Shown one piece after another: positions 43,441 through 61,514 of a stretch of 64,000 bases of DNA. How positions within the stretch are numbered: position 1 is the stretch's first letter; each line of letters starts with the position of its first letter. The DNA lies in contig NZ_VIWX01000001.1 of the NCBI RefSeq assembly GCF_007829955.1, positions 186,001-250,000 of the forward strand. Direction: 5' to 3'. The translations under genes were made by a program, and so were the position numbers. This DNA is from Saccharopolyspora dendranthemae. GTDB taxonomy: Bacteria; Actinomycetota; Actinomycetes; Mycobacteriales; Pseudonocardiaceae. The notes below the pieces were generated by a model. It saw nothing but the letters and a program-made list of their open reading frames with translations. It searched no databases and had not been told where the DNA came from.

Positions 43441-44617
43441 ATGCGAACGCGAAAGCGCTCACAGTCGTTAGCTCGCGGTTGGTTATGGTCCGGTCGAGCG
43501 TTAGGGGCCGTGCTGGCTGCGGTCCTGTGTGCCGCGCCTGCCATGGCGGTGCCCGCAGAACAAGCCGTGGCAGCTCCGGCTAATGCACCTACGGCCGTCC
43601 AGGATGAGTGCGACCGACTGCAGACCCGACTGCCCGAGCTCGCCGAACAAGGACAGCGCCGGGCTCTGTGTGTGGAGAAGCAGCGAACTCCCGACACGGG
43701 GAGTTTTGCGGGTGCAGTAGCGATGACGGATACGGCAGTGCCCGAGCGTTGCTTGGGCGACTATCCCGGGGATGCGTGGATCATCGACCGCTACGTGGGT
43801 TGCCACCGAGAGCTGGTGTTGCTGCGCGTCATCGAGGTGCCCAGCGGCGAACAGATCGGCGAGGTTGACCTCTCGGTGGTCAATTCGATCACAGCAGACC
43901 CCCGTGCGCTGGCTTGGACCCACGACATTTCGATTTCCCGAGTGGGAGCTCGGGGCGATGTCAACGGGGTCATCGCCAACCCCGAGGCCGCCTGCGATGC
44001 CGGCTGCACCGTCACCGCCGCAGCTCCCCCGTCAGGCTTGGTGATGAACAATCCGCAGGGGGGGAATGACCGCCACGTCGATCGTCGATCCCGCTCTGCC
44101 GGGAAGCATTTCAGCGGCGACCACGAGCTGGACCATCCGCTACACTCAGATGGGCTCAGCCCCCTCGGAACCAGCCGTCTACGCCAGCGAGCCGGTGCGT
44201 TGCGATACCGCAACCCCCAACGCCGCGGCGGGTTGCGTGCTCTCGCGCTTCACCCCCACATTGACTTACACCCACGCCCGCAATGGGGAACTCGCCGCGC
44301 ACGTCGCTGATGCCCAGGCCTCGGGATTGCCGGGCTCGCCGCTGCACAGTCCGTTAACGCGCCAGACCGACCCGGAACTGATCACCAAGAATCGCGCCGT
44401 TGCGTGCCCATCGAGTCGGCCGCGACCGCCAGGCGACGAATGCGATGAATACCCATTCGCCAGTACCAACCAGGGTGCTTTCCTCGGCGAAGGATATAGC
44501 CGGCGCATGATCCTCAAGGAGGACAACCGGCAGGGCGGGACCGAACTGGCGGTGTTCTACCTCGACAACCGCGTCATCAACTTCGATCCGTTTAATGTCG
44601 AAGTGACCGCAGGCTAG
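43441..44617 (+). pseudogene. Secreted NucA/NucB-type DNase, frameshifted in a G7 run
   Basis: ATG 43441. Signal peptide: basic MRTRKRSQSLARGWLW, hydrophobic ALGAVLAAVLCAAPAMA, cleavage expected after AMA. The first part has ECDRLQTRLPELAEQGQ and LVLLRVIEVPSGEQIGEVD. At 44058-44064 seven Gs shift the frame; six Gs would continue to MTATSIVDPALPG and the C-terminal nuclease region CDEYPFASTNQGAFLGEGYS, NRQGGTELAVFYLDNRVINF, D. NucA/NucB DNases are Mg-dependent secreted or surface nucleases. Without the correction the enzyme would lack its catalytic domain. The next gene may encode its inhibitor. Confidence 0.75.
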
Positions 44618-44627
44618 CCTGATCGAC

Positions 44628-45137
44628 ATGACACAGCCACTGCTTCGTCTCTCGGGAACAGTCCCAGTAAGCCATCACCAGTTCTTTTTACTGGACGCAC
44701 GGACCTATCCCACCGACGGTGGCCGACTGTCATGGCGGGACAACGGACTGGCCACCAGCGCAGCCGGCATCCTCGCCCTCAGCACTGGGATTCATACCGG
44801 AGAGATCAACCTGGTGGTGGAGCGCTTCGACAACGCTCCACCACCAGACCTGCACGGCTGGGAAGACGTCACCGAACTCGACCTGCAAGTTCCGCACGGT
44901 GAGCTCCACGTCGCGGGGCTGATGCTGGAACCAGCTCCCGAACTACGCACACCGCTGACGATCGTCGGCGGGCGGTGCCGCGCCCGCATCCACGCCACCG
45001 GGCGCGACACCGACATCGACGGAGCCCCACCCGAACCCGTCGAGGACTACCTCATCCAGCTCTGGGACACCGACACCGACGCACCGGCCAATCTCTTGCG
45101 GTCCACCAGCCACTACGGAGCAAACGAACGAACATAG
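44628..45137 (+). CDS. Possible ComJ/Nin-like nuclease inhibitor
   Basis: 169 residues from ATG 44628, ten bases after the NucA stop. SHHQFFLLDARTYPTDGG, DNGLATSAAGILALSTGIHT, GEINLVVERF and DVTELDLQVPHGELHVAGLM follow the order of Bacillus ComJ/Nin (HQF start, Gly-Ala-rich middle, beta C-terminus), the cytoplasmic inhibitor encoded beside nucA. Resemblance is from memory and not aligned. Tight linkage to the nuclease supports an immunity role; the alternative is an unrelated protein. Confidence 0.5.
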   Translation: MTQPLLRLSGTVPVSHHQFFLLDARTYPTDGGRLSWRDNGLATSAAGILALSTGIHTGEINLVVERFDNAPPPDLHGWEDVTELDLQVPHGELHVAGLMLEPAPELRTPLTIVGGRCRARIHATGRDTDIDGAPPEPVEDYLIQLWDTDTDAPANLLRSTSHYGANERT

Positions 45138-45154
45138 GGCTGCCCAAAACCTAT

Positions 45155-45365
45155 TTGGGACGTGTCGGGACACGCCGCAACATCCGTCCCAGCACCTTCT
45201 TACGCGACGTTTCCGCATTTCACACAGCTAAAGTCCCTGTCCCAGGACGTTCTCCCAGGCATGCTCGCGACGGGACACCTGGGACAGCAAACACCCTCTG
45301 CTTCATCGTCTGTCGGGCAGCTGAAGCCGTGTGGTTAGTGCGCAACTCGCTCCTCGGACACGCGC
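45155..45365. repeat. ~200-bp imperfect direct repeat, copy 1
   Basis: Contains GGGAC-rich motifs (CGGGACAC, GTCCCAG, CTGGGACAG, CCCTCTGCTTCA) and an exact 26-bp block at 45323-45348 (starts GAAGCCGTGTGGTTAGTGCG). Copy 2 lies at 51590-51800 in the same orientation. It flanks the membrane protein/helicase/nuclease-like module, so it may derive from an attachment or integration arm. Copy 1 overlaps a recombinase remnant. Confidence 0.65.
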
Positions 45366-45590
45366 ACTATCCCTACGGCCCAGATTCACGGTGGCTTCCA
45401 CAATCCGTGACTCTGGGTCGTAGGTCATTTCCAGGCCCATTCTCTCGTAGAGCTCCTGCAGCTTGTGCGGATCGGCCCTGTTCAAAGCTCCCCCGACATC
45501 GCCGAGTGAGTCGATCATGGCGTAGAGCTCGGCATCGGTCAGAGCGTCAGGTTTCGGAGCGTTGGCCAGCTCAGCTTCGGCAACCACCTA
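45303..45590 (-). pseudogene. Serine-recombinase C-terminal remnant
   Basis: About 95 residues: LTDAELYAMIDSLGDVGGAL, RADPHKLQELYERMGLEMTY, DPESRIVEATVNLG. This is the typical C-terminal tail after the zinc ribbon of large serine recombinases. The catalytic domain is absent. It marks one edge of the repeat-flanked module. Confidence 0.55.
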
Positions 45591-45839
45591 CCGCCCACGT
45601 TCCTCGTCGGAGCCCACATCAAGAAACGCGCCACGTGCAGCGAGGACGAGCGCAAGGACTTCGACAACGTCGGCAACCGTCGCCCCCACCGTGCGTGCGC
45701 ACGGGTTCGGATGCGCACCGGTCATCGTCCATTGCCGGCGACTGCCGCGTGGCCGTGCTCGTCCGCGCGGTTTCATCGATCCGCGCGGAGAATCTCGGAT
45801 CGCCGCTGCGCCCGGGCGGACAGATGGAAGACTGTCTTG

Positions 45840-46358
45840 GTGCATCCCGCTCCAGCCCCTACCGCGACCACCTTCGTCATCACCCGTTCTCCGCACGCGT
45901 ACCAGCGCGAACTCCGGCGCATGCGGATCCCGATCATCGCGCAGTCCGTGTTGGTCGTAATCCAGTTGGCGGCGGGGACCACCCTCACTGCACTGGGAAG
46001 CATCAGCGGCTTCGTGTACTTCCCACTCACGCTGCTCTTGGCTCTCGGTCTCGGCCTCTACCTGCGCGTGTACCGGGTGCACGCCGCGATGCGTGGTCTC
46101 CAGTTGGTTTTCGCCCCAGGCGGGGTGACCTACATGTCGCATTCCGGTGCGTTCACAGCACCTTGGTCCGCGGTGAAGCGGGTTCGTCTACGGCGGGGCC
46201 GGTGGATCTCGGTGCGGGTGCCGCACTGGGGAGGCCCGATCGGCAGCTTCGGCCTGGCCGGTGAACTGATCATGCCACTCCAAGACACGGGACTGAGCTG
46301 GCACGACATCCGTGGCGCGGTCACCTACATCAGCAATGGCACGGTGACACCGCACTGA
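45840..46358 (+). CDS. Membrane protein with PH/YcxB-like C-terminal domain
   Basis: 172 residues from GTG 45840 (ATG 45930 possible). Two adjacent transmembrane segments, IIAQSVLVVIQLAAGTTLTA and GFVYFPLTLLLALGLGLYLR, are followed by a beta-rich cytoplasmic domain, GGVTYMSHSGAFTAPWSAVK, RGRWISVRVPHW, like bacterial PH/YcxB proteins. Function unknown. First gene inside the repeats. Confidence 0.6.
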   Translation: MHPAPAPTATTFVITRSPHAYQRELRRMRIPIIAQSVLVVIQLAAGTTLTALGSISGFVYFPLTLLLALGLGLYLRVYRVHAAMRGLQLVFAPGGVTYMSHSGAFTAPWSAVKRVRLRRGRWISVRVPHWGGPIGSFGLAGELIMPLQDTGLSWHDIRGAVTYISNGTVTPH

Positions 46359-46739
46359 CGTTGGAATCAGCAGCCAGCAGGCAGCAGGCAGCAGGAGGGA
46401 ATGCAAATCCCTCTCCGATACGCACATACCCGAACTCATCTTCAGCCTCACCACGCCTCCGCCAAGAACATCTAGGCCTTCAGCTCAGCGACTGCGGCGA
46501 CCCGGCACACCTCGCGGGGTCCATCAATTCAGGCCTTCGGCGGATGGTCGTCTGCGACCAGGCGATCTAGCGTTCCGTCTGGCGAACCTGGCGCAGCTGT
46601 TGAATCGAGCTGTGATCGTGGCCCAAGAGTTCAGCGCACTGGTGGCGCTTCATGCTGGTGTTCAGACGCGCTAGGTCGTTGCCTATTACGCGCCCTCGTG
46701 AACCCTGTCGATGTTGGCTCGGGACCTCCGGGTGTCTGC

Positions 46740-46803
46740 TCAGTCGTTGACCAGGCCGCCGTCGACCACCAGGTTCTGGCCCGACGAGATCTCGCGCTCG
46801 CAG
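46740..46803 (-). pseudogene. SDR C-terminal stub
   Basis: SSGQNLVVDGGLVND then stop on the minus strand is the classical SDR C-terminus. Only about 20 codons remain, between a 7-base tandem repeat (GGCAGCA, near 46371-46396) and the helicase start. The rest of 46359-46892 holds nothing recognisable. Confidence 0.5.
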
Positions 46804-46892
46804 CCCACGGGAAGCCGATCATGTTCTACAGTGCCCCTTGCTCCGAGCGGTAATCGCATGAACACACTGCGCGACGACACTAGGGGAATTCT

Positions 46893-49800
46893 GTGAGTGA
46901 CAACCGGTCTGCGAACATCGTCCGGTTCTGGCGAAGCATCGAGATGCTCAGTCCGCAAGACGTGCCGAAGACAAAACCCTACCGCCGCGGTGCCCACGAG
47001 CAGATCTTCGACCTGGACGCGGGGGAACTCGCCCCTTGGGAGTCGGGGCACCCGCTCCTCGACGATCCGATCCCCCCTCGGTACACGTGGCAGTTCACCG
47101 TCTACGGCGGCCTGTACTCCCGATCGGCCGTGGCCGAGGCGCTGGTGGAGGCGTTCGGGCAGGACACTAGGGAGGAACGACCGAGCGACGGGCGCACCGC
47201 CCTGTTCGCGCTCACGATCGACGCCGACGGGTGCCTGATCGAGAACGGCGCGACCCTGTCGGCCTGCGCATGGACACTGGGGAAGCTGACGTCCTCCAGG
47301 CTGGATCCCAACACCCTCGACGGGTTCGACGAGGAGGAACGGGCATTCGCCGAGGCGATGGACAAGCTGGTGCCGCCGGAACGTCGCTCCTCCACCGACG
47401 AAGAACACGACGGCAAGACGACCTCCGGCCCGTTCGATCGAGTCGTGCGCGCCTTCGGCGACCGCTTGAAGTCCGCGGGCATTGATGCGTGGAGCGCCGG
47501 AGCCGAAGCCGCGGGCACGGCTGTCAAAACAGCGACGGAGACCGCCGTGGGCCCGGTTCTCGGCGGTGTCGCCGGTGCCGCTGCGGGAGCGTTCACCGAG
47601 AGCGTGCTCGGCCCGGGCGACGCTGCGGACGACGGTGCTGGGTCCGAGACCGCCACCGCGCAACCGAGCGCACCTCGCCTTCTCGTCACCGCCTCGGCAC
47701 TGCACGATTTCGTCGCCGAGATGGCCGCAGCGCTGGGCGTGCGCGATTCCCTCTACCCCACCGGAGTGCGCGTCCGGTGCCGTGCGATACCGATCCGCGA
47801 CGACTCCGCCGATCAGGACTTCCTCAACAGCCACATCTCCAACGACCTCAGCCATGTCGCGGACGCGGTGGCCAGGGACGACATGGGCGCTGCCTTGCGG
47901 AACTACCTGACCGACGAGAGCGCGCTCGACACGGCGCGCCGGGTTGACGTCCGGGCGCACCCGGACGCGGTGATCGCCGGTGTCGAACCTCAGCACGTCC
48001 CGGCCGCGCGGTGGCCCGGCGACCCGGGCAAGCCGCTCGTGCTCAGTCAGCAGTTCGCCGTCAACCGCGTCGTCAGCGAGCTCAAGGACGACGCAGGGCT
48101 GTTCTCGGTGAACGGTCCGCCGGGCACGGGCAAGACCACGTTGCTGCGCGACGTGCTCTCCGCGATCGTCCTCGAGCGGGCGGACCGGCTCGCCGAACTC
48201 GCGTCCCCGTCGGAGGGTTTCACCGAGCGGCTCGAACTCGTTCCGGTCGGGCCGAAGAAGATCCCCACGCCGGTCCACGGCGTGTCCTGCGCGTTGAGCG
48301 GCTTCGAGATCGTCCTCGCCACTGCCACCAACGACGCGGCGAAGAACGTGACCGCTGAGGTGCCCGGGATCGACGCCGTGCGCGGATACACCGACGAAGC
48401 TCTCGACGCCGACTACTTCACCGACCTGGCCTCGCACGTCCTCGACGCCGAGGCGTGGGGGTTGGTCGCGGCAACGCTCGGCAGTCTCAAGTACCGCAAC
48501 ACGTTCGCCAAGCGCTTCTGGTGGGGCAACTACAGGACCTCGCGGAACCAGGACTCCCAGGACGCTGAGCCATCGGGCGCCGTGGGCATGTACCAGCAGC
48601 TCAAGGAATCCGCCCACGATCCCGACGCGGTCGACGACTGGGACACCGCAGTCGCCGAGTTTCGCCGTGCCCGCGAGGAAGTGGAGCGCCTCGCCCAGAC
48701 GCGGCAGCACGCCGCTGACGCGATCACCGCGGAAAGCAAGTGCCGTCGGCGCTGGGATGAGGCCAAGAGGGCGTTCGCCGACGCCGACGCGTTGTGCGCC
48801 CTCGTGAGAAAGGACTTGGCGACCAGCGACGCCGAGGCGAAGCATGCCGACCGGGTGTTCCGCGACACCGACGACGACTACGAGAGCCACCTCCGGCACC
48901 GGCCGGGATTATGGGTCACGTTGGCCACGTGGTTCCGCGCACCGCGCGAATGGCAGGCCAAGCACGAGGGTCTCGAGGAGGCTCGGGATGCGGCGAAGAA
49001 GAAGCTCCGCGACGCCGAAGGGACGCAGGAACGACTCCAGCAGCGACTGAGCGCGAAACTGACCGAGCTGCAGAAGGCTGAAGACGCACGCGCCGCGGCC
49101 TCGTACGAGCTCGACCTGGCTCAGGGCAAGGTGACTCAGGCGCGCGACCGATGGCCCGGCCATGTGCCGATCCCCGACGATTTCTCCGGCGACGACGAGT
49201 TCCAGAAGTGCGCGCCGTGGTCCGACGAGGAGTACGTCACGGCCCGCAACCGGCTCTTCCTGAAGGCGCTGCGATTGCACCGCGCCTTCATCCTGCACTC
49301 CAGCAACCGGATCCGCAGCAACCTCAGCGTCATGACCGAGATCCTGCAGGGCAACGCCAAGCCCTCCTCGGCAGCGAGATTGGCGGCCTGGCAGTCCTTG
49401 TTCCTGGTCGTGCCGATGATCTCGACGACGTTCGCCTCACTGCCTCGCCTGTTCAACGGTCTCGGGCGCGAGAGCCTGGGCTGGCTCCTCGTCGACGAAG
49501 CAGGCCAGGCCACCCCGCAGCAGGTGGTCGGCGGTATGTGGCGCTGCCAACGGGCGGTCGTGGTGGGAGATCCGCAGCAGCTTGAGCCGATCGTGACGCT
49601 GCCGACCTCGGCACAACACGCGCTGCGCCGTCATCACCAGGTCGACGAGCAATGGACTCCGGAGACGACCTCGGCTCAGGGCGTGGCCGACAGGCTCACC
49701 CGTCACGGGACCGCGCTGCCCCTCCAGGACAGCGACGAGCAGGTCTGGGTGGGCGCTCCGCTGCGCGTCCACCGACGTTGCGACCGACCGATGTTCGAAG

Positions 49801-50318
49801 TGTCGAACGACATCGCCTACGGCGGAACGCTCATGGTCTACGGAACCCAGCACACTGGTCAGTTCCCGGACGAAAACCGCTGGATCGACGTCCGAAGCCA
49901 GATCTCCACCGGCCACTGGGTTGGCGATGAGGGAAACGCGCTCACCGATCTGTTCGAGCAACTGGTGGCGCAGGAAGTCGACCTGGATGACGTCCGGGTG
50001 ATCAGTCCGTTCCGCGACGTCGTCAGAGGAGCCAAGAACCGGCTCAGCGCGCACGTCGGCCCTGAGTTCGCGAAGCGCAACGTGGGGACCGTGCACACCG
50101 TGCAGGGCAAGGAGTCCGACGTCATCGTCCTCGTGCTGGGGAGCGCTCCGAAAAGCCCCGGCGCACGGCTGTGGGCGGCCGACCGCCCGAACCTGCTCAA
50201 CGTAGCGGTCTCCAGGGCCAAACGACGGTTCTACGTCGTCGGCAATAGACAGCTCTGGAAGGATCTCCGCTTCTTCGATCGGCTCGCTGCGTCGCTCCCC
50301 GTTCACGAGTGGCGGTGA
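46893..50318 (+). CDS. Superfamily 1 DNA/RNA helicase (UPF1-like) with coiled-coil insertion
   Basis: 1141 residues from GTG 46893. A long N-terminal region of unknown fold has a Gly/Ala-rich segment (AVGPVLGGVAGAAAGAFTES, near residues 210-235). Helicase core: Walker A NGPPGTGKTTLLRDVLSAIV near residue 407, then an acidic coiled coil (about 590-750, QERLQQRLSAKLTELQKAE), Walker B LLVDEAGQATPQQVVGGM near 866, GDPQQLEPI, and the C-terminal motifs VRVISPFRDVVRGAKNRL, VGTVHTVQGKESDVIVLVLG and LNVAVSRAKRRFYVVGNR. This is the architecture of COG1112-type helicases in phage-defence operons. The adjacent gene has a possible nuclease-like motif. Confidence 0.85.
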   Translation: MSDNRSANIVRFWRSIEMLSPQDVPKTKPYRRGAHEQIFDLDAGELAPWESGHPLLDDPIPPRYTWQFTVYGGLYSRSAVAEALVEAFGQDTREERPSDGRTALFALTIDADGCLIENGATLSACAWTLGKLTSSRLDPNTLDGFDEEERAFAEAMDKLVPPERRSSTDEEHDGKTTSGPFDRVVRAFGDRLKSAGIDAWSAGAEAAGTAVKTATETAVGPVLGGVAGAAAGAFTESVLGPGDAADDGAGSETATAQPSAPRLLVTASALHDFVAEMAAALGVRDSLYPTGVRVRCRAIPIRDDSADQDFLNSHISNDLSHVADAVARDDMGAALRNYLTDESALDTARRVDVRAHPDAVIAGVEPQHVPAARWPGDPGKPLVLSQQFAVNRVVSELKDDAGLFSVNGPPGTGKTTLLRDVLSAIVLERADRLAELASPSEGFTERLELVPVGPKKIPTPVHGVSCALSGFEIVLATATNDAAKNVTAEVPGIDAVRGYTDEALDADYFTDLASHVLDAEAWGLVAATLGSLKYRNTFAKRFWWGNYRTSRNQDSQDAEPSGAVGMYQQLKESAHDPDAVDDWDTAVAEFRRAREEVERLAQTRQHAADAITAESKCRRRWDEAKRAFADADALCALVRKDLATSDAEAKHADRVFRDTDDDYESHLRHRPGLWVTLATWFRAPREWQAKHEGLEEARDAAKKKLRDAEGTQERLQQRLSAKLTELQKAEDARAAASYELDLAQGKVTQARDRWPGHVPIPDDFSGDDEFQKCAPWSDEEYVTARNRLFLKALRLHRAFILHSSNRIRSNLSVMTEILQGNAKPSSAARLAAWQSLFLVVPMISTTFASLPRLFNGLGRESLGWLLVDEAGQATPQQVVGGMWRCQRAVVVGDPQQLEPIVTLPTSAQHALRRHHQVDEQWTPETTSAQGVADRLTRHGTALPLQDSDEQVWVGAPLRVHRRCDRPMFEVSNDIAYGGTLMVYGTQHTGQFPDENRWIDVRSQISTGHWVGDEGNALTDLFEQLVAQEVDLDDVRVISPFRDVVRGAKNRLSAHVGPEFAKRNVGTVHTVQGKESDVIVLVLGSAPKSPGARLWAADRPNLLNVAVSRAKRRFYVVGNRQLWKDLRFFDRLAASLPVHEWR

Positions 50319-50397
50319 GGCGCTCGCGCACAAGTGGTGTCGCCGCGGCCGCCTGATCGAAACATCTGACACCAGCACGAGGGAGATCAAGGCGAGC

Positions 50398-51528
50398 ATG
50401 GGATCAGCCAGGTTACGTGTGTTCGAGTACGAGGCGACCGGCAGTCGGTCCCCGAAGTTGAAGGGGACTCCTACACAGGTCGGCAAAGATTTCCTGATCC
50501 CGGTGAACCTCGCCTCAGTGATCAAGACAAACGCCCTGGCCACCCCGCTGAAGAGCGCCAAACTCGACTACCGGACAAGGCGAAGTGAGCTTCAACTGTT
50601 GACCTCGTTCCTTGCGGACGAGGCCAACGCGATCAGACTCCGCAGGGCCGAGTTCAGTTCGAGCGCACACCACATCCAACGTTTCGTCAGCGAGTCCGGC
50701 GGGCTTGGCGTGCTCACCGCAGTAGTCCAAGCATGCTGGAATTGGAGTACGGGACACGGCCCCGTCCACAACGTCGACGTGATCAATGGAGCGCTGGCAA
50801 AGCAGTACAGGAGCGGGAACGGATCGCGGCCAGACCTGCTGTTCGACCTCGGCTTGAAACGCATGCTCGCGGGCGAAGCACGGGGCCGATCGAACAACCC
50901 GCATCGCTTGGTCACCTCGAAGCAGTACCAACGACTCGAAAGCTTGCTGCCCTGGAGCGCAAGCACCGGCACCCCGCTGTTGATGACCTGGGCATATTTC
51001 ACCGACACTGAAACCGTTGTCGATCTCTTCGTGCCACGTGATCCGGGAGGGCGCGCCTTCACGCCGTTCACATCCGAGACGTGGTCGGGAACAACGAATC
51101 CCAACGTGAAAAGCCTGTCATCGTTCCTCACACCGTGGTGGCCGGAGGAGTCGAACGAAGTCCGTCATCGTAACAGCGGGCCGGAGGGCACCTTCACCAT
51201 GGCGGCTCAGGAGCTACACCGGTTTGAATCCGAGCTCTTCCACTCAGCCGAAGAGGAAGACTCGGTCGGGTTTGCGGGGCGGAACCTACGGGGAGGCTGG
51301 GTGCCCACTGACCTGTTTCGCCGCGGACCGGGAAGGCTATTCCTGGGAGTGCTCAACGAGCAGCTCAGGCCCTCGGAGACCGCAGACATCATGCCCGAAA
51401 TGCAAACCCGCTACGAACGTTACAGCGACGGATGGTTGGCCACCCGCCCCACCGTCGCTATCGGCGGCCGCATTGTCGTCGTCCACGACCCGTACGGAGC
51501 AACCGGCTGGGATCTTCTTCGGCTGTAG
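50398..51528 (+). CDS. Helicase partner with possible PD-(D/E)xK-like motif
   Basis: 376 residues from ATG 50398 (79 bases after the helicase). The segment GSRPDLLFDLGLKRMLAGEA, RGRS at residues 141-167 resembles a PD-(D/E)xK active site (PD, then GEA with a following basic residue), but the spacing and Lys are not canonical. The remainder is beta-rich (PLLMTWAYFTDTETVVDLFV). No family recognised. Orientation and spacing imply an operon with the helicase. A nuclease role is a hypothesis, not an assignment. Confidence 0.5.
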   Translation: MGSARLRVFEYEATGSRSPKLKGTPTQVGKDFLIPVNLASVIKTNALATPLKSAKLDYRTRRSELQLLTSFLADEANAIRLRRAEFSSSAHHIQRFVSESGGLGVLTAVVQACWNWSTGHGPVHNVDVINGALAKQYRSGNGSRPDLLFDLGLKRMLAGEARGRSNNPHRLVTSKQYQRLESLLPWSASTGTPLLMTWAYFTDTETVVDLFVPRDPGGRAFTPFTSETWSGTTNPNVKSLSSFLTPWWPEESNEVRHRNSGPEGTFTMAAQELHRFESELFHSAEEEDSVGFAGRNLRGGWVPTDLFRRGPGRLFLGVLNEQLRPSETADIMPEMQTRYERYSDGWLATRPTVAIGGRIVVVHDPYGATGWDLLRL

Positions 51529-51589
51529 ACGCGCGGCCACGGCATGGCCGCCGGCACCGGTGCACCGATTGAGATCGTGCAGCCGGTTC

Positions 51590-51800
51590 AGGGACACATC
51601 GGGACACCCAGCAACACCCGTCCCACCACGCACCCAACCCCTGTTCCTGCAGTTCGGAAGACCCGACGACCTGTCCCGTCCGGGTGTCCCAGATGGACTA
51701 GAGCTGGGACACCCGGGACAGCAAAAAGCCCTCTGCTTCAGGCTGTTTCGGGAAGCAGAAGCCGTGTGGTTAGTGCGCAACTCCCCCCCTCGGACACAAA
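51590..51800. repeat. ~200-bp imperfect direct repeat, copy 2
   Basis: Matches copy 1 in order: CGGGACAC, CCGTCCCA, CTGGGACA, GGGACAGCAAA, CCCTCTGCTTCA, then the exact 26-bp block at 51758-51783. Directly oriented with respect to copy 1; the copies bound about 6.4 kb. An integrase remnant begins 130 bases to the right. Confidence 0.65.
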
Positions 51801-51924: not shown

Positions 51925-52390
51925 ATCAGCAGGCGCCGACGTTCGTCGACTACATCCCCGAGGTCGCCAAGGCCGTTTCCCCCGGCACCAAGCATGTGTA
52001 GGGCACCTACTGGAACCGCATCCTCCAACACTGGGGACACCGACACCTCGACGAACCCACCACCCTCGAAATCCAGCAGCTCGCCGAAACCATCAGCTCA
52101 CAGGTTGTCGTGCGCCGCAACGCCCGCGGTGGACGCGGCGCCGCCGAGCACTTCATCACCGCCATCCGCTGCCTCTACAACCACGCCGTCGCCGACAAGC
52201 TCATCACCGAAAGCGACAACCCGGCCAAGAACGCCACCAAGCCCCGACGGCTCGCCAGCACCCGCCGAGGACTACCGGACAACCGGCTCAACGAAATCAA
52301 CCACATCGCCGCCACCACCGGCGACGACCCCCGCACTCGACACCCTCGTCCTGCGCCTGCACATCGAAACCGCCCTCCGAGTGGCACGCC
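51925..52390 (+). pseudogene. Tyrosine-recombinase N-terminal remnant with amber codon
   Basis: TFVDYIPEVAKAVSPGTKHV, TAG at 51999-52001 (Tyr expected), GTYWNRILQHWGHRHLDEPT, ARGGRGAAEHFITAIRCLYN, PRRLASTRRGLPDNRLNEIN. This is the SAM-like core-binding region of a site-specific integrase. The catalytic domain is lost at about 52390, where the carotenoid cluster begins. It does not resemble the remnant at 26626. Confidence 0.75.
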
Positions 52391-52469: not shown

Positions 52470-53480
52470 TCAACGGTTTCGAAGTGCGTAGCGCCTTTCG
52501 GCGTAGGCCAGATCGTCACGCCACAGCCTGGCTGCTCTCCGCTTCATGATCGGGCGAAGCGCTCCCGCGGCTCGCCGAGCGACCGCGAATCCCGGTCGAG
52601 TGGAATCGGCGATCACCGCCTCGACGACGGCGGTCCGGAAGCGGCCGTCGGCTCCCCGGCCCAGCGGTGTCGCATGTGTCTCGACCACGCTTCCCACGCC
52701 TTCGCCCTCGACGATGCGCATTACCACCGTCCTGGGCTCCGGGCAGACGAACTCGGCGCGCACCGGAACGCCGAACTGGCCGGCGACGCGGAAGGTCACC
52801 TCCACCAGGAACCGGTCCTGAGACTCGTCGTCCAGGACGGGCGGCGGAGCGCTGAGGACCGTCAGGCGGGTGAACGAGTAAGGGTGGAACCAGGCCCCGT
52901 GCCAGGGGTCCAAGCGGTTGGCGACGATGTCCGAGGGTTCGCACGCCCCGGCCATCGAGGCCACCGCTACGACGCCGGAAGCCGCGGGTGGCCGCGCGGC
53001 GATGACGGGTGTGTCCAGGGGCTCCTCTCCACCGACGTGATCCAGCCGAACCCACGCGAGAACCCCGTCGTCGTGACACGGCAGCGGTTTCCAACCCCGG
53101 CCCGCGCCCGGGCCCACGCGGAGCCCGTGCCATCTGCACACCAGTGAATCGCAGTCCACAGTGGCCTGGCTCAGCGGTGCGCCCAGGTGCGGGCAGGTCC
53201 CCGGGCCGACGCGGAGGGCCCCTGCCGAGTCGCGCCAGGCGACCAGTTCGATCCCGGCGACCTGGAAACCGCGGGGTCTCCTGGTGTCGATCTCCCGGCT
53301 GGCGGCCAAGACGTACCAGTTCCCGGACGGTCTGGTTTCTGCTCGCTTGAGCGCGGCGTCGATGATCGCCGGTTCGGCGTCGCGGTAGGTGGGCGCCTGG
53401 TCGGCCCACTGGCTCTCGACGACCGGTTGCACCGGCCAGTTCTGCGGCCAACGCCGTTGCAGCGCGCGCCAGGTCGTCAT
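52470..53480 (-). CDS. Rieske protein (DUF5914), last gene of the carotenoid operon
   Basis: 336 residues from ATG 53480. Rieske cluster: TCPHLGAPLS and VCRWHGLRVG (Cys-His pairs), then a C-terminal domain with NRLDPWHGAWFHPYSFTRL. DUF5914 is fused or adjacent to carotenoid desaturase/methylases in actinobacteria and may supply electrons to the CrtU-like enzyme. The ATG overlaps the crtU stop (ATGA), so coupling is certain; the exact reaction is inferred. Confidence 0.75.
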   Translation of the reverse strand: MTTWRALQRRWPQNWPVQPVVESQWADQAPTYRDAEPAIIDAALKRAETRPSGNWYVLAASREIDTRRPRGFQVAGIELVAWRDSAGALRVGPGTCPHLGAPLSQATVDCDSLVCRWHGLRVGPGAGRGWKPLPCHDDGVLAWVRLDHVGGEEPLDTPVIAARPPAASGVVAVASMAGACEPSDIVANRLDPWHGAWFHPYSFTRLTVLSAPPPVLDDESQDRFLVEVTFRVAGQFGVPVRAEFVCPEPRTVVMRIVEGEGVGSVVETHATPLGRGADGRFRTAVVEAVIADSTRPGFAVARRAAGALRPIMKRRAARLWRDDLAYAERRYALRNR

Positions 53481-55051
53481 CGCGTGCCCTCCTTCACTCG
53501 CGTGGTGAGCCAGCGCAGCGCCGCCGTTCGCCCTGCTGTCGGTACCGAGAACAGGTCGTGGCCGCGCAATCCCCACCTCGCCAACAGGTGGTTGGCGGCG
53601 TGCCAACCGGTCGTGGCCGCACGCTCCATCAACGCCACCGGCAGGTCGATCCGCACCCCGTCGCCGGCCAGCACCAGACCGGGGTGCGGGGTCGCGACGA
53701 GGGGCCGCCGGGCGAAATCCCCCACCCCGAACAACGGGCAGTCCTCGCGCCAGAGGAACGATTCGGCGGCGATGCCGGACCGTGCGGTCTCCGGGTAGAT
53801 CTCGTGCAAGCGGCGCAGCAGGTCCCGGCGCAACCGCTGGGTGCACGCCTCCTGCCCGACTCCGGGGTCCGCGGGTATTCCGTAGGCGTGCAGCTCGACG
53901 GTCGAGCCCCCGCGGCGCGCCGACCAGTCCTGCGCGTCGCGGTCGTAGCGGTCGAGCACGCTGATGTTGTCCAGCGGCGTCCGGCCTGCCGTGCCCAGGA
54001 ATGCGGGGCGGTGAGGCGCGACGGGTTCGTCGAGCCAGAGGCGCTGGACGAAGAACGGCGGAGCCGATCGCAAGCTCCGCACCGATTCGGTCCAGTGCGG
54101 TGCGTGCAGGTCCGGGGACGCGTCCACCACCTCGCGAAGGCCGGGCACGTCGGCGGCCAGGACCACGCCGTTCACCGCGTCGGTGTTCCCGGCGTCGTCA
54201 TGCACCCGGAACGACCGCCCGCCGTCCACGAGATCGATGCGCTGGACGGTTGTGCCGACCCGGAATTCGACGCCGCGGGCGGTCAAGTACTTGTGCAGCG
54301 GTGTCCACAGACTGCGGTCGAACCCCGCGTCCGGGACGTCGAAGAGGATTCCCTCGTTGGAACCGAGGAAGTAGATGTGGAACATCGCGGCCAGCTCCGC
54401 GGCCGACATCTGAGAGGGGTGCGCGAAGAAGCTTCGCGAGAAGACCTCGAACGCCAGGTGCCGGGCGGCAGGCGGGAAGTTGATCGACCTCAGGAAGCTC
54501 TCGGCGTCGACGTGGTCCAGCCTGTGGTAGATGCCGGGCACGGTGACGTTGCCGAGCGGTGCGGCGGCGCGGGGATCCAAGCGGAGCAGGTCCCGTTTGC
54601 GGAAGGTCGGACTGCGCAGTGCGAAGGCGACCGCGTTCCACGGCGGGTTTCGAGGCAGGCCGCGGAAGCTGTCCAGGCGTCCGCGCGAGTCGATCAGGGG
54701 GTAGTCGTCCAGCGCGGTCAACCTCTCCAGGCCGGGGTCAGCGCGTCGTAGCAGCAGGCGCAGGTTGTAGTACTGGCGGAAGAAGGCGTGAAAACCGCGG
54801 CTCATGGCGACCTGCCCGCCGTCGCCGAGCTGTTCGGTCCAACCGCCTGCCCTGCCGCCCAGGTAGGACTCGCGCTCGATGAGCCGAACTTCGACGCCGC
54901 GTTCGACGAGTCCGGTCGCCGCGCAGAGCCCGGCGATTCCGCCCCCGACGACGACCACTCGCGGTCTGCCCGCTCGTTCGACCGGATGCGTGCTCGCGCG
55001 GGGTCCCGGGTGGCGGACGATCCTGCGATCCTTGGCGATCTCACCGCTCAT
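53477..55051 (-). CDS. crtU: FAD-dependent carotenoid oxidoreductase, CrtU-like
   Basis: 524 residues from ATG 55051. FAD-binding VVVVGGGIAGLCAATGLVER, ERESYLGGRAGGW, SRGFHAFFRQYYNLRLLLRR, PLIDSRGRLDSFRGLPRNP, C-terminal LVLAGDGVRIDLPVALMERA. It has the CrtI/CrtU fold and resembles beta-carotene desaturase/methyltransferase of isorenieratene pathways (beta-ring to phi-ring). The methyltransferase just upstream and the Rieske gene just downstream support this. A plain amine oxidase-like desaturase is the alternative. It overlaps the methyltransferase by 11 bases. Confidence 0.7.
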   Translation of the reverse strand: MSGEIAKDRRIVRHPGPRASTHPVERAGRPRVVVVGGGIAGLCAATGLVERGVEVRLIERESYLGGRAGGWTEQLGDGGQVAMSRGFHAFFRQYYNLRLLLRRADPGLERLTALDDYPLIDSRGRLDSFRGLPRNPPWNAVAFALRSPTFRKRDLLRLDPRAAAPLGNVTVPGIYHRLDHVDAESFLRSINFPPAARHLAFEVFSRSFFAHPSQMSAAELAAMFHIYFLGSNEGILFDVPDAGFDRSLWTPLHKYLTARGVEFRVGTTVQRIDLVDGGRSFRVHDDAGNTDAVNGVVLAADVPGLREVVDASPDLHAPHWTESVRSLRSAPPFFVQRLWLDEPVAPHRPAFLGTAGRTPLDNISVLDRYDRDAQDWSARRGGSTVELHAYGIPADPGVGQEACTQRLRRDLLRRLHEIYPETARSGIAAESFLWREDCPLFGVGDFARRPLVATPHPGLVLAGDGVRIDLPVALMERAATTGWHAANHLLARWGLRGHDLFSVPTAGRTAALRWLTTRVKEGTR

Positions 55052-55793
55052 CTCGACCTCGGCCCGACTCCACCGGGCGCTCGGCGACGAAGGTGTGCAC
55101 GATCCGCCGCTGCCAGCCCGTCATGGTCGCGGTGCGCACCGCCGTGAACCCCGCCTCGGCCAATCTGCGGCGGAAGCGCCCCACCCCGTCGAACTCCGCA
55201 ACGCTGCGCCGCAGGTATCGGAACAGCGCGGTGTCACCGGTGGCTGCGAACCCGGAGGGGATGATCACGCCGCAGCACACCGCCTGCCACGTCGCCCGCG
55301 CCAGGAGCGAGTCTTGAACGGAGTACTCGTGGACGCCCAGCGCGCCGCCGGGCCGGAGCAGCGCCCGCAAGGCGCGCAGCCGTGCGTCCGGATCGGTCAC
55401 GTTGCGGATCAGGTACGCGGCGAGGATCCCGTCGAACGGTCCGCGCACACCTGCTTCGGCCGGCGATTCGATCGGGGCGTGCGCGAACCGCACCGACTCC
55501 GGCCAGTCCTTCCGCCGCGCGCGCGACAGCATCTCCGCCGACGCGTCCACCCCCACGATCTCCGCGTGCGGGTACACCTCCAGCAGCGCCGCGGTCGATG
55601 CTCCCGTCCCGCACCCGGCGTCGAGCAGCCGCAAGCCAGATCCCGCCCCGGGCAAGCACATCCGGCGCGCCGAGGAGCGGAGGTGTCGGTGGTAGCCGGG
55701 GTTGGCCGCCACCAGCCGGTCGTAGGAACCCGCGGCGCGGTCGAAGGCCTCGGTCACAGCAGGGCCGCGCGTGCCGATCTCGCCTGGCTTCAC
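55041..55793 (-). CDS. crtT: Methyltransferase of the carotenoid operon, CrtT-like
   Basis: 250 residues from GTG 55793, behind GGGGAGGGGAAG. FDRAAGSYDRLVAANPGYHR, LLDAGCGTGASTAALLEVYP (SAM motif I), AEIVGVDASAEMLSRARRKD, GPFDGILAAYLIRNV. Resembles UbiE/CrtT methyltransferases found in the Streptomyces crtYTU set; its substrate in the carotenoid pathway is not established. GTGA overlap with crtYd. Confidence 0.65.
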   Translation of the reverse strand: MKPGEIGTRGPAVTEAFDRAAGSYDRLVAANPGYHRHLRSSARRMCLPGAGSGLRLLDAGCGTGASTAALLEVYPHAEIVGVDASAEMLSRARRKDWPESVRFAHAPIESPAEAGVRGPFDGILAAYLIRNVTDPDARLRALRALLRPGGALGVHEYSVQDSLLARATWQAVCCGVIIPSGFAATGDTALFRYLRRSVAEFDGVGRFRRRLAEAGFTAVRTATMTGWQRRIVHTFVAERPVESGRGRDER

Positions 55794-56131
55794 GGCGCTT
55801 CCCCTCCCCTCTGCGGTGGCGTTCTCGCGCCCCGCTGGCGTTCCCAGAGCAGCAGCACGGAAGTCACCAGCGAGAACCCGAAGAGGAAGTCCTCGACGGG
55901 GATGTCCCACGGGAACCGCACACCGCTGAGGTGTTCCGCCGCGTAGATGACGGTGGGCTCGTCGAGCCTGGTGAGCAGGCCGTCGACCGGGATCTGGAAA
56001 CCGAGCACGATGACCGTGGTCAGCCAGTAGCTCGGTTTGGCGAACAGCCCGGTGCGCAGCACAGCGGCCTCCCACACCAGCACGATCAGGACCGAGAGCA
56101 CTGCGGGCACGGTGTAACCGATGCCGATCAC
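55790..56131 (-). CDS. crtYd: Lycopene beta-cyclase subunit, C-terminal half type
   Basis: 113 residues from GTG 56131. Three hydrophobic helices (TVPAVLSVLIVLVWEAAVLR, PSYWLTTVIVLGFQIPVDGL, PVEDFLFGFSLVTSVLLLW), with the PxED motif of heterodimeric cyclases. Forms the bacterial cyclase with CrtYc and cyclises lycopene to beta-carotene in the membrane. Starts within the crtYc stop (GTGA). Confidence 0.8.
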   Translation of the reverse strand: MIGIGYTVPAVLSVLIVLVWEAAVLRTGLFAKPSYWLTTVIVLGFQIPVDGLLTRLDEPTVIYAAEHLSGVRFPWDIPVEDFLFGFSLVTSVLLLWERQRGARTPPQRGGEAP

Positions 56132-56487
56132 GATGCACGCTCCTTCCGCGCCGGTGAGCTCCCCGTCCGGCGGAAGGCGGCCAGCAGCGCCTCGACGCAG
56201 CCGAAGGTCAGCAGGGCGCAGAGCGGGATCACCGCGAAGAACAGCACTTCCTCCAGCGGCAGGTGACCGAGCACTTCCACCCCGGAGACCCGGCGCGCGT
56301 CGAACGACCACACCCCAGCCGCGATGGCCACCGCATCCCAGACCAGGAACACCGCCGCGACCGGCAGAACACTCCTGATCGCCCGTCGCGGCCTGCGGTA
56401 GACCCTGGCCCCGAGGAATTCCAGCGGAGCTGTGATGGCCACGCACATGGCGAGGATGAGCAGGTAGCGCAGCTGATCAGGTTCCAT
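56128..56487 (-). CDS. crtYc: Lycopene beta-cyclase subunit, N-terminal half type
   Basis: 119 residues from ATG 56487. Helices LRYLLILAMCVAITAPLEFL, VLPVAAVFLVWDAVAIAAGV and LPLEEVLFFAVIPLCALLTF, with the conserved LPLEE motif. Partner of CrtYd. Its start is 11 bases inside crtB, so tight coupling is expected. Confidence 0.8.
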   Translation of the reverse strand: MEPDQLRYLLILAMCVAITAPLEFLGARVYRRPRRAIRSVLPVAAVFLVWDAVAIAAGVWSFDARRVSGVEVLGHLPLEEVLFFAVIPLCALLTFGCVEALLAAFRRTGSSPARKERAS

Positions 56488-57526
56488 GGCCCGCCTCCGG
56501 ATGGTGGTCGTCCCGCTCCCCGGTGCTCGCGCCTCTCCCGATCGGTGGTCCGATCATGCGATCTCCCCTGCCCGCTCGGCCGGGCCGCGGTGCGCCCCTC
56601 GACTGCCGGGCCAGCGCCGCGCGGAGAAGGCCGGCGGCCGCGACCCGGCCCCGACGCCACCTGCCGACCACCGCGCGGCTGTGGAACACCGCGAAGTCCT
56701 GCTCCTCGATGCGGTCCAGGATCTCGGCGTAGAGGGTGCACGCGGTCTCGATGCAGGGGCGCGAAACCGGTTCCAGCAACTCGATCCCCTTCCGCGCGAA
56801 CCGGTAGACCTCCCTGGCGGCGGCGTGTTGCTCTGCCAGGGCCCGGCGAACGCGCGGGTCAGTGCGCCGGTGCTGCCTGCACCAGGTGAGCAGTTCCCGG
56901 TCCACGCCGTGCGCGGCCAGCTCATCGGCCGGCAGGTAAACCCGGTCGCGGTCCAGGTCCTCGGCTACGTCTCGCAGGAAGTTGGTCAGCTGGAAGGCCT
57001 TCCCCAGCGCCGCAGCGTGCGGAGCCGCGTGCTCAGGCGGGCCCGTGGTGCCCAGCACCGGCAGGAGTTGCAGCCCGATGGCCTCGGCCGAGCCGCGCAT
57101 GTACCGGTCCAAGGCTGCTCGATCCGGGTAGTCGGTCACCGAGAGGTCTGTGCGCATGGACGTCAGGAAGTCCTCGAACAGGCTTCGGTGCAGCCCGTAG
57201 CGCCGTGCGGTGTCCACCACCGGGGCGATCAGTTGGTCCCGGCTGCTCCCGCGATCGAGGCCGGTCAGCAGCTCGCGTCCCAGCTGGGCCAGCTCAGCAC
57301 CGCGCTCGCCGGTGCTCGCCGGCGAGCGGGGCTCGTCGACGATGTCGTCGGCCCACCGGGCGAACCCGTACAACGCGTGCACCGCGGGGCGCCGCCCGCG
57401 GGGCAGCAGCCGAGTCGCCAGGAAGTAGGTCCGCCCGTGCCGCGCGTTGAGCCCCCGGCATCGCTGGTAGGCCTGCCGGAGCCCCGGGTCGGTGATCCCG
57501 GCGGCGTCGAGTTCCGCATCTCTCAT
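56477..57526 (-). CDS. crtB: Phytoene synthase
   Basis: 349 residues from ATG 57526. Squalene/phytoene synthase motifs YGFARWADDIVDEPRSPAST (first aspartate-rich DDxxD) and TNFLRDVAEDLDRDRVYLPA (second), plus a C-terminal linker. Joins two geranylgeranyl diphosphates to phytoene. The start overlaps the crtI stop (ATGA). Confidence 0.95.
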   Translation of the reverse strand: MRDAELDAAGITDPGLRQAYQRCRGLNARHGRTYFLATRLLPRGRRPAVHALYGFARWADDIVDEPRSPASTGERGAELAQLGRELLTGLDRGSSRDQLIAPVVDTARRYGLHRSLFEDFLTSMRTDLSVTDYPDRAALDRYMRGSAEAIGLQLLPVLGTTGPPEHAAPHAAALGKAFQLTNFLRDVAEDLDRDRVYLPADELAAHGVDRELLTWCRQHRRTDPRVRRALAEQHAAAREVYRFARKGIELLEPVSRPCIETACTLYAEILDRIEEQDFAVFHSRAVVGRWRRGRVAAAGLLRAALARQSRGAPRPGRAGRGDRMIGPPIGRGASTGERDDHHPEAGHGT

Positions 57527-59052
57527 GGGCGATTCCTCATCGCTCTCATCGGACCGCGCTCCGCCGAGCGCGGCGAGCCAGCTCCGGTGATGCGGTCCGC
57601 CGCCAAGCGCCCGGACACCAGCGCAGTCGGCACCCCGACCCCCGGAACGGTGGACGAACCGGCCAACACCACGTTCTGCGAGGATCGGGGGAAGTTTCTG
57701 GGCCGGAACGGACCTGTTTGCGCGAACGTGTGCGACCAGGCGAACGGGGTCCCTGCGACCATGCCCCTCTCGGCCCAGTCCGCCGGGGTCAGCACGTGCG
57801 AGGCGTCCACCGATGCGCGCACACCTGGGAGCAGCCGGTCTTCCAGCAGGCTGACGAGTTCGTCGGCGTAGGGCTCGGCACGCGTCCGCCAGTCGATGGG
57901 TCCGCGGCGGAGATGGGGAACCGGGGCGAGCACGCTCAACAGATCGCGCCCCTCGGGCGCGAGGGCCGGGTCAGTCGCCGTCGGTCTTGTCACCAGCAGC
58001 GAGGGATCGCGCATCACCCTGCCCTCGGTGATGAGCTCGTGGAAAGTCGAGCGCCACGCGTCTCCGAACGAGATCGTGTGGTGGGCGAGGGCCCCGGGTT
58101 GAGCGCGCACTCCGAGGTGCACGACGAAGGCCGACGGCGAGGGACGCAGCGGCACCGCACGACGCGGTTCACGCCCGAGCAGCCGGTGGGCCACCGGCGA
58201 GTCGACCGTGAGCACCGCTGCGTCGCAGGCGAAGCGCCTGCCGTCCGAGGTCCGGACGGCGCGGACCCGTGACCCCGAGCGTTCCAAGGACTCCACCTCG
58301 GCGCCGTAGTGGATCTCCACGCCAGCGTCCTCCGCCGCCCGCGCCAGTCCATCGGGGACCGCTCGCACGCCGCCACGGGGGAACCACACCCCCGCCACCG
58401 TGTCCATGTAGGAGATCACCGCGTACGCGGCGAGCGCTCGGTGCGGCGACACCCCAGCGTAGAGCGCCTGGAAGCTGAACACCCGGCGCAGTCGAGGGTC
58501 GGACAGGAACCGGCCGATGGCGCGGTCCAGCCGCCCGAACGCCCCCATCGCCACCAGCCGCGGGAGCTCAGGTGCGAGCAGGGACAGCGGAGAATCCAGG
58601 TTGGCGGCGATGAAGCGGTCGAACTCCACCCGGTAGAGCTCCGTCAGCCACGCCCGCAGCCGCTGGTAACCGGCTGCGTCGGCAGCACCGGAAAACGCCC
58701 TGATCTCCTCCGTCATCGCCGCGGCGTCGCTGTGCACCGCCAAGCTGCTCCCGTCCGCGAACACAGCACGGTAGGCCGGATCCACCGGGAGCAGTTCGAC
58801 GTGATCGGACATGCGCGCCCCGGCCGCCGCGAAGGTCCCTTCGAGGATGTCCGGCATGGTCAACACGGTCGGACCGGTGTCGACGCGGTAGCCCAGCATG
58901 TCCAGCCGCCCGGCGCGCCCACCAGGAACGCACTCCCGCTCCAACAGCTCGACGCGCCTCCCCCGCCCTGCCAGGTGCAGCGCGGCTGACAGCCCGGCGA
59001 AGCCGGCGCCGACCACCACCACCCGATCAGTTCGACCACTCACCGTGCGCAT
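57523..59052 (-). CDS. crtI: Phytoene desaturase
   Basis: 509 residues from ATG 59052 behind a purine-rich GGGGGAGACGG. FAD motif RVVVVGAGFAGLSAALHLAG, RVELLERECVPGGRAGRLDM, YRVDTGPTVLTMPDILEGTF, C-terminal NVVLAGSSTVPGVGVPTALV (CrtI signature). Four-step desaturation of phytoene to lycopene. The stop overlaps the crtB start, and the crtE stop is 46 bases upstream. Confidence 0.95.
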   Translation of the reverse strand: MRTVSGRTDRVVVVGAGFAGLSAALHLAGRGRRVELLERECVPGGRAGRLDMLGYRVDTGPTVLTMPDILEGTFAAAGARMSDHVELLPVDPAYRAVFADGSSLAVHSDAAAMTEEIRAFSGAADAAGYQRLRAWLTELYRVEFDRFIAANLDSPLSLLAPELPRLVAMGAFGRLDRAIGRFLSDPRLRRVFSFQALYAGVSPHRALAAYAVISYMDTVAGVWFPRGGVRAVPDGLARAAEDAGVEIHYGAEVESLERSGSRVRAVRTSDGRRFACDAAVLTVDSPVAHRLLGREPRRAVPLRPSPSAFVVHLGVRAQPGALAHHTISFGDAWRSTFHELITEGRVMRDPSLLVTRPTATDPALAPEGRDLLSVLAPVPHLRRGPIDWRTRAEPYADELVSLLEDRLLPGVRASVDASHVLTPADWAERGMVAGTPFAWSHTFAQTGPFRPRNFPRSSQNVVLAGSSTVPGVGVPTALVSGRLAADRITGAGSPRSAERGPMRAMRNRP

Positions 59053-59098
59053 CCGTCTCCCCCTGGGGACGGGGCGAGTCGGCCCTGGGCCCGGCCGG

Positions 59099-60226: not shown

Positions 60227-60548
60227 CTCGGACCTGCCTTTCGATCCGGATCACCCGGCTCGAACTGCTCTCGCTGCTGCGTCACCCGGTCGCGCGACCC
60301 CTCAGGCCTGAGCGCCTGCATCGATGCGGTGCACGACGTGCACCAGATGACTTCGGCGAGCAACGTCAGCCGTGGCGTCAGCACCATCTCCAATCGGAGA
60401 GGCGCACGACCGTTCCCAGCGGTAACCGTAGAAAGCAATGCACCACCGATGCAACTCGAATCGAGCGCTATCCGTCCAATGGGCGTCGGACAACACACGG
60501 GTGGTTTCGCACGAGCACCGTCGGATCACGACGACGTGACGCACCGAC
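60227..60548. other. Region upstream of crtE
   Basis: 322 bases between crtE and the SDR gene. No convincing gene. No clear MerR/LitR dyad was found by eye. It is likely to hold the crt promoter. Confidence 0.4.
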
Positions 60549-61391: not shown

Positions 61392-61514
61392 GAAAACCCT
61401 CCCTTCCCGGCCCACACCGGAGAAATCGATGCACCACCAAGAACCACGTGGACCGGGTGACCCCGTCCCGCGGAGACTCGGCTGGCGAACCGTACTGCGC
61501 AGCAGGATCGTTCG

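What the first reader, a model, noticed from the sequence alone, without database searches (positions are those of the whole stretch)
46893..51528. Helicase plus partner with possible nuclease-like motif, flanked by repeats: candidate defence module
A 1141-aa UPF1-like SF1 helicase (Walker A, DEAG box, HTVQGKESD and VAVSRAKRRF motifs, coiled-coil insertion) is followed in the same direction by an unrecognised 376-aa protein with PDLLFD...AGEARGR, reminiscent of a PD-(D/E)xK nuclease. Direct repeats and recombinase remnants bracket the module, which has mobile-cargo structure. Helicase plus nuclease pairs occur in known systems (for example Mokosh, which uses a PLD nuclease), but this partner does not match what I recall of them.
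Basis: partly seen in the sequence, partly recalled or inferred. Interest (0 to 1): 0.8.

Follow-up and report, generated by a model that had tools for sequence, protein, structure and literature searches.

The report
Lone helicase and unrelated neighbour, island cargo
Two neighbouring genes in a soil actinobacterium, a helicase related to known anti-phage proteins and a protein of an undescribed family, look like a defence pair but are better explained as independent cargo brought together on a patch of DNA marked off by what look like site-specific recombination sites.

Summary
The genome is a Saccharopolyspora. The pair reading fails. Helicase relatives occur without the partner (4 of 7 loci); the helicase was found in 1 of 32 partner contexts, the same DNA segment in S. 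aridisoli; in S. flava the helicase is cut short while the partner is intact. The genes diverged differently between window and S. aridisoli (dS 0.113 against 0.007; break between 50353 and 50586, p 4.5e-10). The helicase is closest to Mokosh MkoC (E 2.7e-63) but has no PLD nuclease; it is not a Mokosh system. The partner belongs to an undescribed family (31 of 390 family genomes) with a conserved D...E-x-(R/K) motif like PD-(D/E)xK nucleases; its fold was not established. The repeats behave as recombination sites: homology between genomes stops at a core ending CCTCGGACAC, followed elsewhere by a tyrosine-recombinase operon or a large serine recombinase. So: defence-type cargo by accretion, a new protein family, an unusual shared site.

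The parts
44066..44617 (+). NucA/NucB-type DNase gene, upstream neighbour outside the repeats
   Evidence: Pfam PF14040 E 4.5e-10
44628..45137 (+). gene of unknown function just before repeat 1; a similar-looking gene lies near the partner relative in G007 (by eye)
   Evidence: ORF, no Pfam; DNA 93.8% shared with G016 up to the repeat; G007 counterpart read by eye
45153..45361 (+). direct repeat 1, recombination-site-like; core 45342-45361
   Evidence: nhmmer E 4.6e-58, but this copy was one of the 6 seeds of the model; homology with G016 from upstream stops at the core end
45318..45581 (-). remnant of a large serine recombinase C-terminus, overlapping the core
   Evidence: 54.5% identity to residues 402-488 of the L150 serine recombinase, which matches Pfam Recombinase
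45711..46358 (+). possible membrane/bacterial PH protein
   Evidence: PF10756 E 0.0051, below cut-off
46402..46655 (.). remnant matching the start region of a Beta_protein gene of S. aridisoli
   Evidence: 79.5% DNA identity to L041 1055-1312; L041 gene = PF14350 E 3e-41
46740..46781 (-). tail remnant of a short-chain-dehydrogenase-like gene (name by eye); a whole one stands beside the helicase in G016
   Evidence: ends ...GQNLVVDGGLVND as the L037 gene does
46782..50344 (+). helicase unit: stretch shared with G016
   Evidence: blastn limits 46782-50344 (G016), 46783-50318 (second S. flava copy); left limit 46782 also with S. aridisoli. S. aridisoli and G016 share further sequence upstream, so 46782 is a junction of the window's own
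46893..50318 (+). UPF1-like SF1 helicase, 1141 aa, no PLD domain
50354..50585 (.). interval holding the divergence breakpoint between helicase and partner units
   Evidence: 151 mismatches in 3572 bp before, 15 in 1444 bp after
50398..51528 (+). partner, 376 aa, undescribed family with PD-(D/E)xK-like motif D146...E160-x-R162
51585..51797 (+). direct repeat 2, recombination-site-like; core 51777-51797
   Evidence: nhmmer E 1.2e-58, also a seed of the model; homology with S. aridisoli stops at 51798
51927..52331 (+). remnant of a tyrosine recombinase
   Evidence: 71.9% identity to residues 37-171 of the L094 integrase, itself PF00589 E 3.6e-12

Best explanation
The stretch 45361-51797 is cargo lying between two copies of a recombination site (core ending CCTCGGACAC). 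It holds two independently evolving genes. The first is a stand-alone UPF1-like helicase of a broad, defence-associated family that most likely acts alone, or with other cell enzymes, on nucleic acid of invaders (function inferred, not shown). The second belongs to an undescribed family found, in the other loci examined, without this helicase; it is probably a PD-(D/E)xK-like nuclease (inferred from motif). They became neighbours when integrative elements, driven by a tyrosine recombinase (with a small companion gene) and/or by a large serine recombinase, inserted and recombined at the shared site; both recombinases seen beside this copy are only remnants, so it probably cannot move by its own means. 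Shown: no conserved pairing in what was searched, different divergence of the two genes, homology stopping at the site. Inferred: the recombination mechanism and both biochemical functions.
For: Helicase relatives (43% identity or more) without partner: G016 95%, second copy in S. flava 79%, G009 52%, G004 43%. Helicase found by blastp (E 1e-3) in 1 of 32 contexts around partner matches. In S. flava the helicase frame starts at residue 69 of the window protein, while the partner there reads identically. dS 0.113 (helicase) against 0.007 (partner) for the same two genomes, break between 50353 and 50586, p 4.5e-10. Site: the last 45 or so bases are nearly invariant in 29 aligned copies while upstream parts vary; L134 and L135 share 4 kb at 99.5% up to the repeat and then show no match of 100 bp or more, L134 and L148 share 1.6 kb from the first base after the core and no such match before; of 33 sites, 9 are followed by the small companion gene and/or the tyrosine recombinase, 6 by a serine recombinase gene whose 3' end overlaps the core, 3 by serine recombinase pieces 57-836 bp away. 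Defence company: Beta_protein, SLFN-type helicase, MazG-like in S. aridisoli; type IIG restriction enzyme and Mrr-type gene on either side of the G004 helicase.
Against: In the window and S. aridisoli both genes are intact, 79 bp apart in the same direction; no terminator-like site on the + strand was found between them in the window, so co-transcription is possible. At 15 of 33 sites neither recombinase type (nor the companion gene) was found by tblastn within 3 kb; other recombinases were not sought. The 33 sites are a selected set, not a sample. Cargo at other sites is often metabolic by inspection of ORFs. No excision product or experiment was available. The wide genome searches scored only a few candidates per genome (4 for the partner for the helicase), so pairs elsewhere may be missed.
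Confidence: 0.72

Rival explanations
1. A young but functional two-gene defence system: the helicase senses or unwinds foreign nucleic acid and the partner is its nuclease, assembled once in Saccharopolyspora and spread with the segment.
For: Same strand, 79-bp gap, both intact in the window and S. aridisoli, where the outer flanks differ. PD-(D/E)xK-like D146 and E160 in 29 of 29 sequences.
Against: One transferred segment only; four helicase relatives lack the partner and the other partner contexts lack the helicase; unequal divergence of the two genes; helicase 5'-truncated in S. flava with partner kept (confidence lowered from 0.17 for this).
Confidence: 0.15
2. The helicase is a reduced Mokosh type II protein (MkoC) that has lost its PLD nuclease and uses the partner in its place.
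For: MkoC is the best PADLOC match, E 2.7e-63, aligned 248-947 of 1136.
Against: Pfam scans of 6 relatives (four Saccharopolyspora loci, a Kitasatospora and a Klebsiella aerogenes plasmid) list no PLD domain at E 0.1; no HxK(x)4D motif in either window protein; so lack of PLD seems usual in this branch.
Confidence: 0.06
3. Neither gene is for defence: the helicase is a general RNA/DNA helicase carried passively and the partner a housekeeping protein.
For: The second S. flava helicase copy and the G009 copy lie among apparently metabolic genes by eye; six partner loci of genus g286 share neighbours, which suggests vertical inheritance there.
Against: Defence-type neighbours in S. aridisoli and G004, patchy distribution, near-identical partner DNA in two species with different flanks.
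Confidence: 0.2

Closest known systems
Mokosh type II (MkoC)
   Same: UPF1-like SF1 helicase of similar length; helicase part aligns over 700 profile positions
   Different: no C-terminal PLD nuclease in it or in 6 relatives scanned; the partner matches no PADLOC model
Plasmid-borne UPF1-like helicases (annotated viral (Super1) RNA helicase, ATP-binding protein and the like)
   Same: 616 plasmid records match at E 1e-40 or better, 535 of them Klebsiella; the ten best rows show 36-47% identity over 59-77% of the query; one (CP028952) is 1082 aa with no PLD, and no plasmid record matched the partner
   Different: mostly other phyla and other neighbours; what they do was not looked up
PD-(D/E)xK nucleases (Mrr_cat and NERD tested)
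   Same: order D...E-x-(R/K) followed by a conserved region
   Different: no profile similarity (probability 0.1%), whereas Mrr against NERD gave 19.5% in the same test; R instead of K in 26 of 29
Integrative elements accreting at one site (ICE/IME; PMC3218068 and PMC5704250, seen as search listings with the start of the abstract only; accretion recalled)
   Same: direct repeats as ends, recombinase gene next to one end, shared core
   Different: two recombinase classes beside the same core; conjugation genes were not sought

Membership tests
Mokosh type II | COG1112/UPF1-like RNA helicase domain | tested here: met
   MkoC E 2.7e-63; AAA_11, AAA_12 over cut-off. Definition from a passage of PMC11672841.
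[quoted passage not shown]
   Protein ends after the helicase match; no PLD among the 20 Pfam families listed at E 1, no HKD motif
Mokosh type I | separate PLD nuclease gene and an STK domain | tested here: not met
   Partner: no Pfam/PADLOC match, no HKD motif; no kinase domain in the helicase's Pfam list
PD-(D/E)xK nuclease superfamily | catalytic D ... (D/E)-x-K | tested here: inconclusive
   D146 and E160 in 29 of 29; third residue R in 26, K in 3
PD-(D/E)xK nuclease superfamily | restriction-endonuclease-like fold | tested here: inconclusive
   AlphaFold2 model from 3 near-identical sequences had mean pLDDT 29.6; no PDB profile match; hhalign negative against two families, with a weak positive control
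Integrative element attachment site | shared core at which unrelated flanks join | tested here: met
Integrative element attachment site | excision/integration by the adjacent recombinase | not testable with these tools
   needs experiment or read data
Integron cassette array | IntI-type integrase and attC sites | not tested
   no IntI or attC model search was made; one recombinase was scanned and matches the general PF00589

The most novel reading that the evidence does not exclude
Saccharopolyspora and relatives carry a common docking site (a core of about 30-50 bp, often within a repeat of about 213 bp) used both by elements with a small-gene/tyrosine-recombinase operon and by large-serine-recombinase elements whose gene ends inside the site, so that unrelated elements stack at the same spot and reshuffle cargo, defence genes among it, in an integron-like way; the partner would be one of its cargo, a new single-gene nuclease-type effector family.
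Probability: 0.28. Interest if true: 0.62.

Novelty: new variant of a known kind. Interest (0 to 1): 0.36.

Why it matters
It removes a tempting but unsupported helicase-nuclease pair and puts two better questions in its place: what an undescribed protein family, matched in 31 of 390 genomes of the taxonomic family searched, does, and how two different classes of recombinase came to sit at one and the same core.

Tried and rejected
Mokosh membership: rejected for lack of PLD. Repeats as tRNA/tmRNA or known RNA gene ends: no tRNA and no Rfam match (window at gathering scores; five loci at E 1). Partner in phages or plasmids by tblastn: no match; in viral contigs: 67 pattern matches, none a relative. 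Helicase in 296 phylum genomes at E 1e-30: only the window's own genome, but just 2 candidates per genome were scored. hhalign against Mrr_cat and NERD: the first two runs read minus-strand loci on the wrong strand and are void; the corrected run used 18 and 10 sequences, partner negative, control Mrr-NERD weakly positive. Of the loci returned I used those 18 of 20 and 10 of 24. AlphaFold2: model too poor, so no fold search was made. The idea that islands at these sites are mainly defence islands: not upheld, many carry metabolic ORFs by eye. PHROGs gave only weak matches, best E 0.013. Core pattern search in 390 family genomes matched in 245; the reversed-pattern control also matched in some, and many matches are clearly chance, so no prevalence is claimed; its 30 loci were printed and the 6 whose cores looked complete by eye went on, so those 6 are a chosen set. 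Two of the 29 aligned copies (L041 at 742-952, L135 at 368-578) were missed by the regular expression; its 33 sites are the other 27 plus those 6. Papers: Mokosh passages were seen in PMC10013915, PMC10952713, PMC11672841 and PMC10925250 (find passages only); all other papers were seen as listings, with the start of the abstract. Searches that might have shown a published account of the shared site listed none that I recognised as such; I did not read those papers. A helicase literature search was not followed up.

Full report
1. Observation. Both genes, the motifs, the repeats and the recombinase remnants are present as described. The other genome with the pair, G006, is by the same token S. 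aridisoli (L010). The name Pseudonocardiaceae for the taxonomic family is recalled; the tool gives it as f1.

2. Helicase. Pfam AAA_11 and AAA_12 pass cut-offs. The best defence model is MkoC, E 2.7e-63, but only its positions 248-947 of 1136 align. Six relatives (four Saccharopolyspora loci, a Kitasatospora plasmid, a Klebsiella aerogenes plasmid) list the same helicase domains and no PLD domain at E 0.1. In plasmids, 616 records match at E 1e-40 or better, 535 of them Klebsiella, none with 80% of the query in one place; no plasmid record matched the partner. That MkoA and MkoC are UPF1-like is stated in PMC10925250 (passage). dN/dS is 0.19, 0.24, 0.29 and 0.41 against four relatives, which points to purifying selection.

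3. Partner. The window protein has no Pfam or PADLOC match at E 1 and one NCBIfam match below its cut-off. Scans of 28 relatives gave only single weak matches in Pfam and NCBIfam, none in PADLOC, and four weak PHROGs. No PDB sequence matched the profile. It was found in 31 of 390 genomes of the family, some with fragments only, and in 2 of 396 genomes drawn from the phylum, the window's own included. In 29 aligned sequences R7, N45, E64, F96, E99, G102, D146, E160, G163, R164, W186 and W198 are invariant; residue 162 is R in 26 and K in 3. The order PD...E-x-(R/K) suggests a PD-(D/E)xK nuclease. This is a motif argument: the structure model failed (pLDDT 29.6), and hhalign against Mrr_cat and NERD gave 0.1% probability, while Mrr against NERD gave 19.5%.

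4. Are they a pair? In 22 genomes of the genus, 7 loci in 6 genomes hold a helicase relative of 43% identity or more. The partner follows in 3 (G000, S. flava, S. aridisoli), which share one segment, and not in 4. In S. flava the shared DNA begins only at 47099: the helicase there lacks its first 68 residues and is joined to other DNA, whereas the partner is identical to the window's. Of 32 contexts around partner matches, full, fragmentary or marginal, one (S. aridisoli) contains a helicase hit at E 1e-3. Between window and S. aridisoli, 151 mismatches fall in the 3572 bp up to 50353 and 15 in the 1444 bp after it (Fisher p 4.5e-10), with dS 0.113 against 0.007. G016's homology ends at 50344. 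So the two genes have separate histories. What speaks for a pair is position: same strand and a 79-bp gap, with both genes intact in two genomes.

5. The repeats. Sixteen of 22 genus genomes have at least one match to repeat 2, some of them short. Twenty-nine copies with the 3' end share a nearly invariant end, CG-GTG..TAGTG-GCAA-(C/G)T...CCTCGGACAC, while the part before it varies and in some is unrelated. Homology between genomes stops at this end: window and S. aridisoli share the left of repeat 2, window and G016 the left of repeat 1; L134 and L135 share 4 kb at 99.5% to the left only; L134 and L148 (86%) and L141 and L145 (79%) share sequence from the first base to the right only (matches under 100 bp were not listed). 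This is what site-specific recombination leaves. To the right of the core stand, in 33 sites inspected, a small gene and/or a tyrosine recombinase in the same direction (9), a large serine recombinase whose 3' end overlaps the core (6), serine recombinase pieces 57-836 bp off (3), or none of these within 3 kb (15). I call the small gene AbrB-like by eye only; Pfam gave no match for the one scanned. The L150 serine recombinase matches Recombinase and zinc-ribbon models, and the resolvase model just below its cut-off. In the window, repeat 1 is followed by a serine recombinase remnant and repeat 2 by a tyrosine recombinase remnant.

6. Company. In S. aridisoli the same segment lies beside Beta_protein (PF14350), an SLFN-type helicase and a MazG-like gene. 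In G016 a GmrSD_N gene lies near the helicase. In G004 a type IIG restriction enzyme and an Mrr-type gene flank it. Other sites carry mostly metabolic-looking ORFs, so the site is a general landing place, not a defence-only one.

7. Mechanism and verdict. Best supported: two independent cargo genes gathered at a recombination hot spot; the helicase probably a stand-alone anti-invader enzyme and the partner probably a nuclease, both inferred. Not a member of Mokosh. The protein family and the shared core are the parts worth following.

Noticed in passing
window 45342-45361 and 51777-51797; L134, L135, L145, L148, L150 and others: One core lies beside two different recombinase classes (tyrosine with a small companion gene; large serine), with inverted arms CGGGTGAATAGTG / CACTATTCACCCG in some sites such as L135.
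   Followed up: partly
window 44066-45137; L034 10596-11810: A NucA/NucB-type DNase gene (both scanned) and a small following gene lie upstream of the window module and also next to the partner relative in G007.
   Followed up: partly
L042 about 7494 in the orientation: In S. flava the helicase is joined to other DNA at residue 69, while the partner is whole; whether this is a real rearrangement or an assembly fault was not tested.
   Followed up: partly
L141 5778-18496: Three cores in about 8.4 kb of G004 bracket or adjoin a 1288-aa AAA_11/AAA_12 helicase and a DUF4011-MTES_1575 helicase.
   Followed up: no
plasmids, e.g. CP028952 (L181): UPF1-like helicase relatives sit on 535 Klebsiella plasmid records; 564 of all 616 matching records are typed as conjugative. 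Their role was not looked into.
   Followed up: no
L034 14204-17943: Near the G007 partner, behind a transposase-like gene: a calcineurin-like phosphoesterase and an ATPase, an SbcD/SbcC-like pair by eye.
   Followed up: no
L040 6752-16910: The G004 helicase relative stands between an Mrr_cat gene and a type IIG restriction enzyme-methyltransferase.
   Followed up: partly
window 6000-36000 and 52500-63000: Several transposase-like ORFs to the left, and what looks by eye like a carotenoid gene cluster to the right of the module.
   Followed up: no
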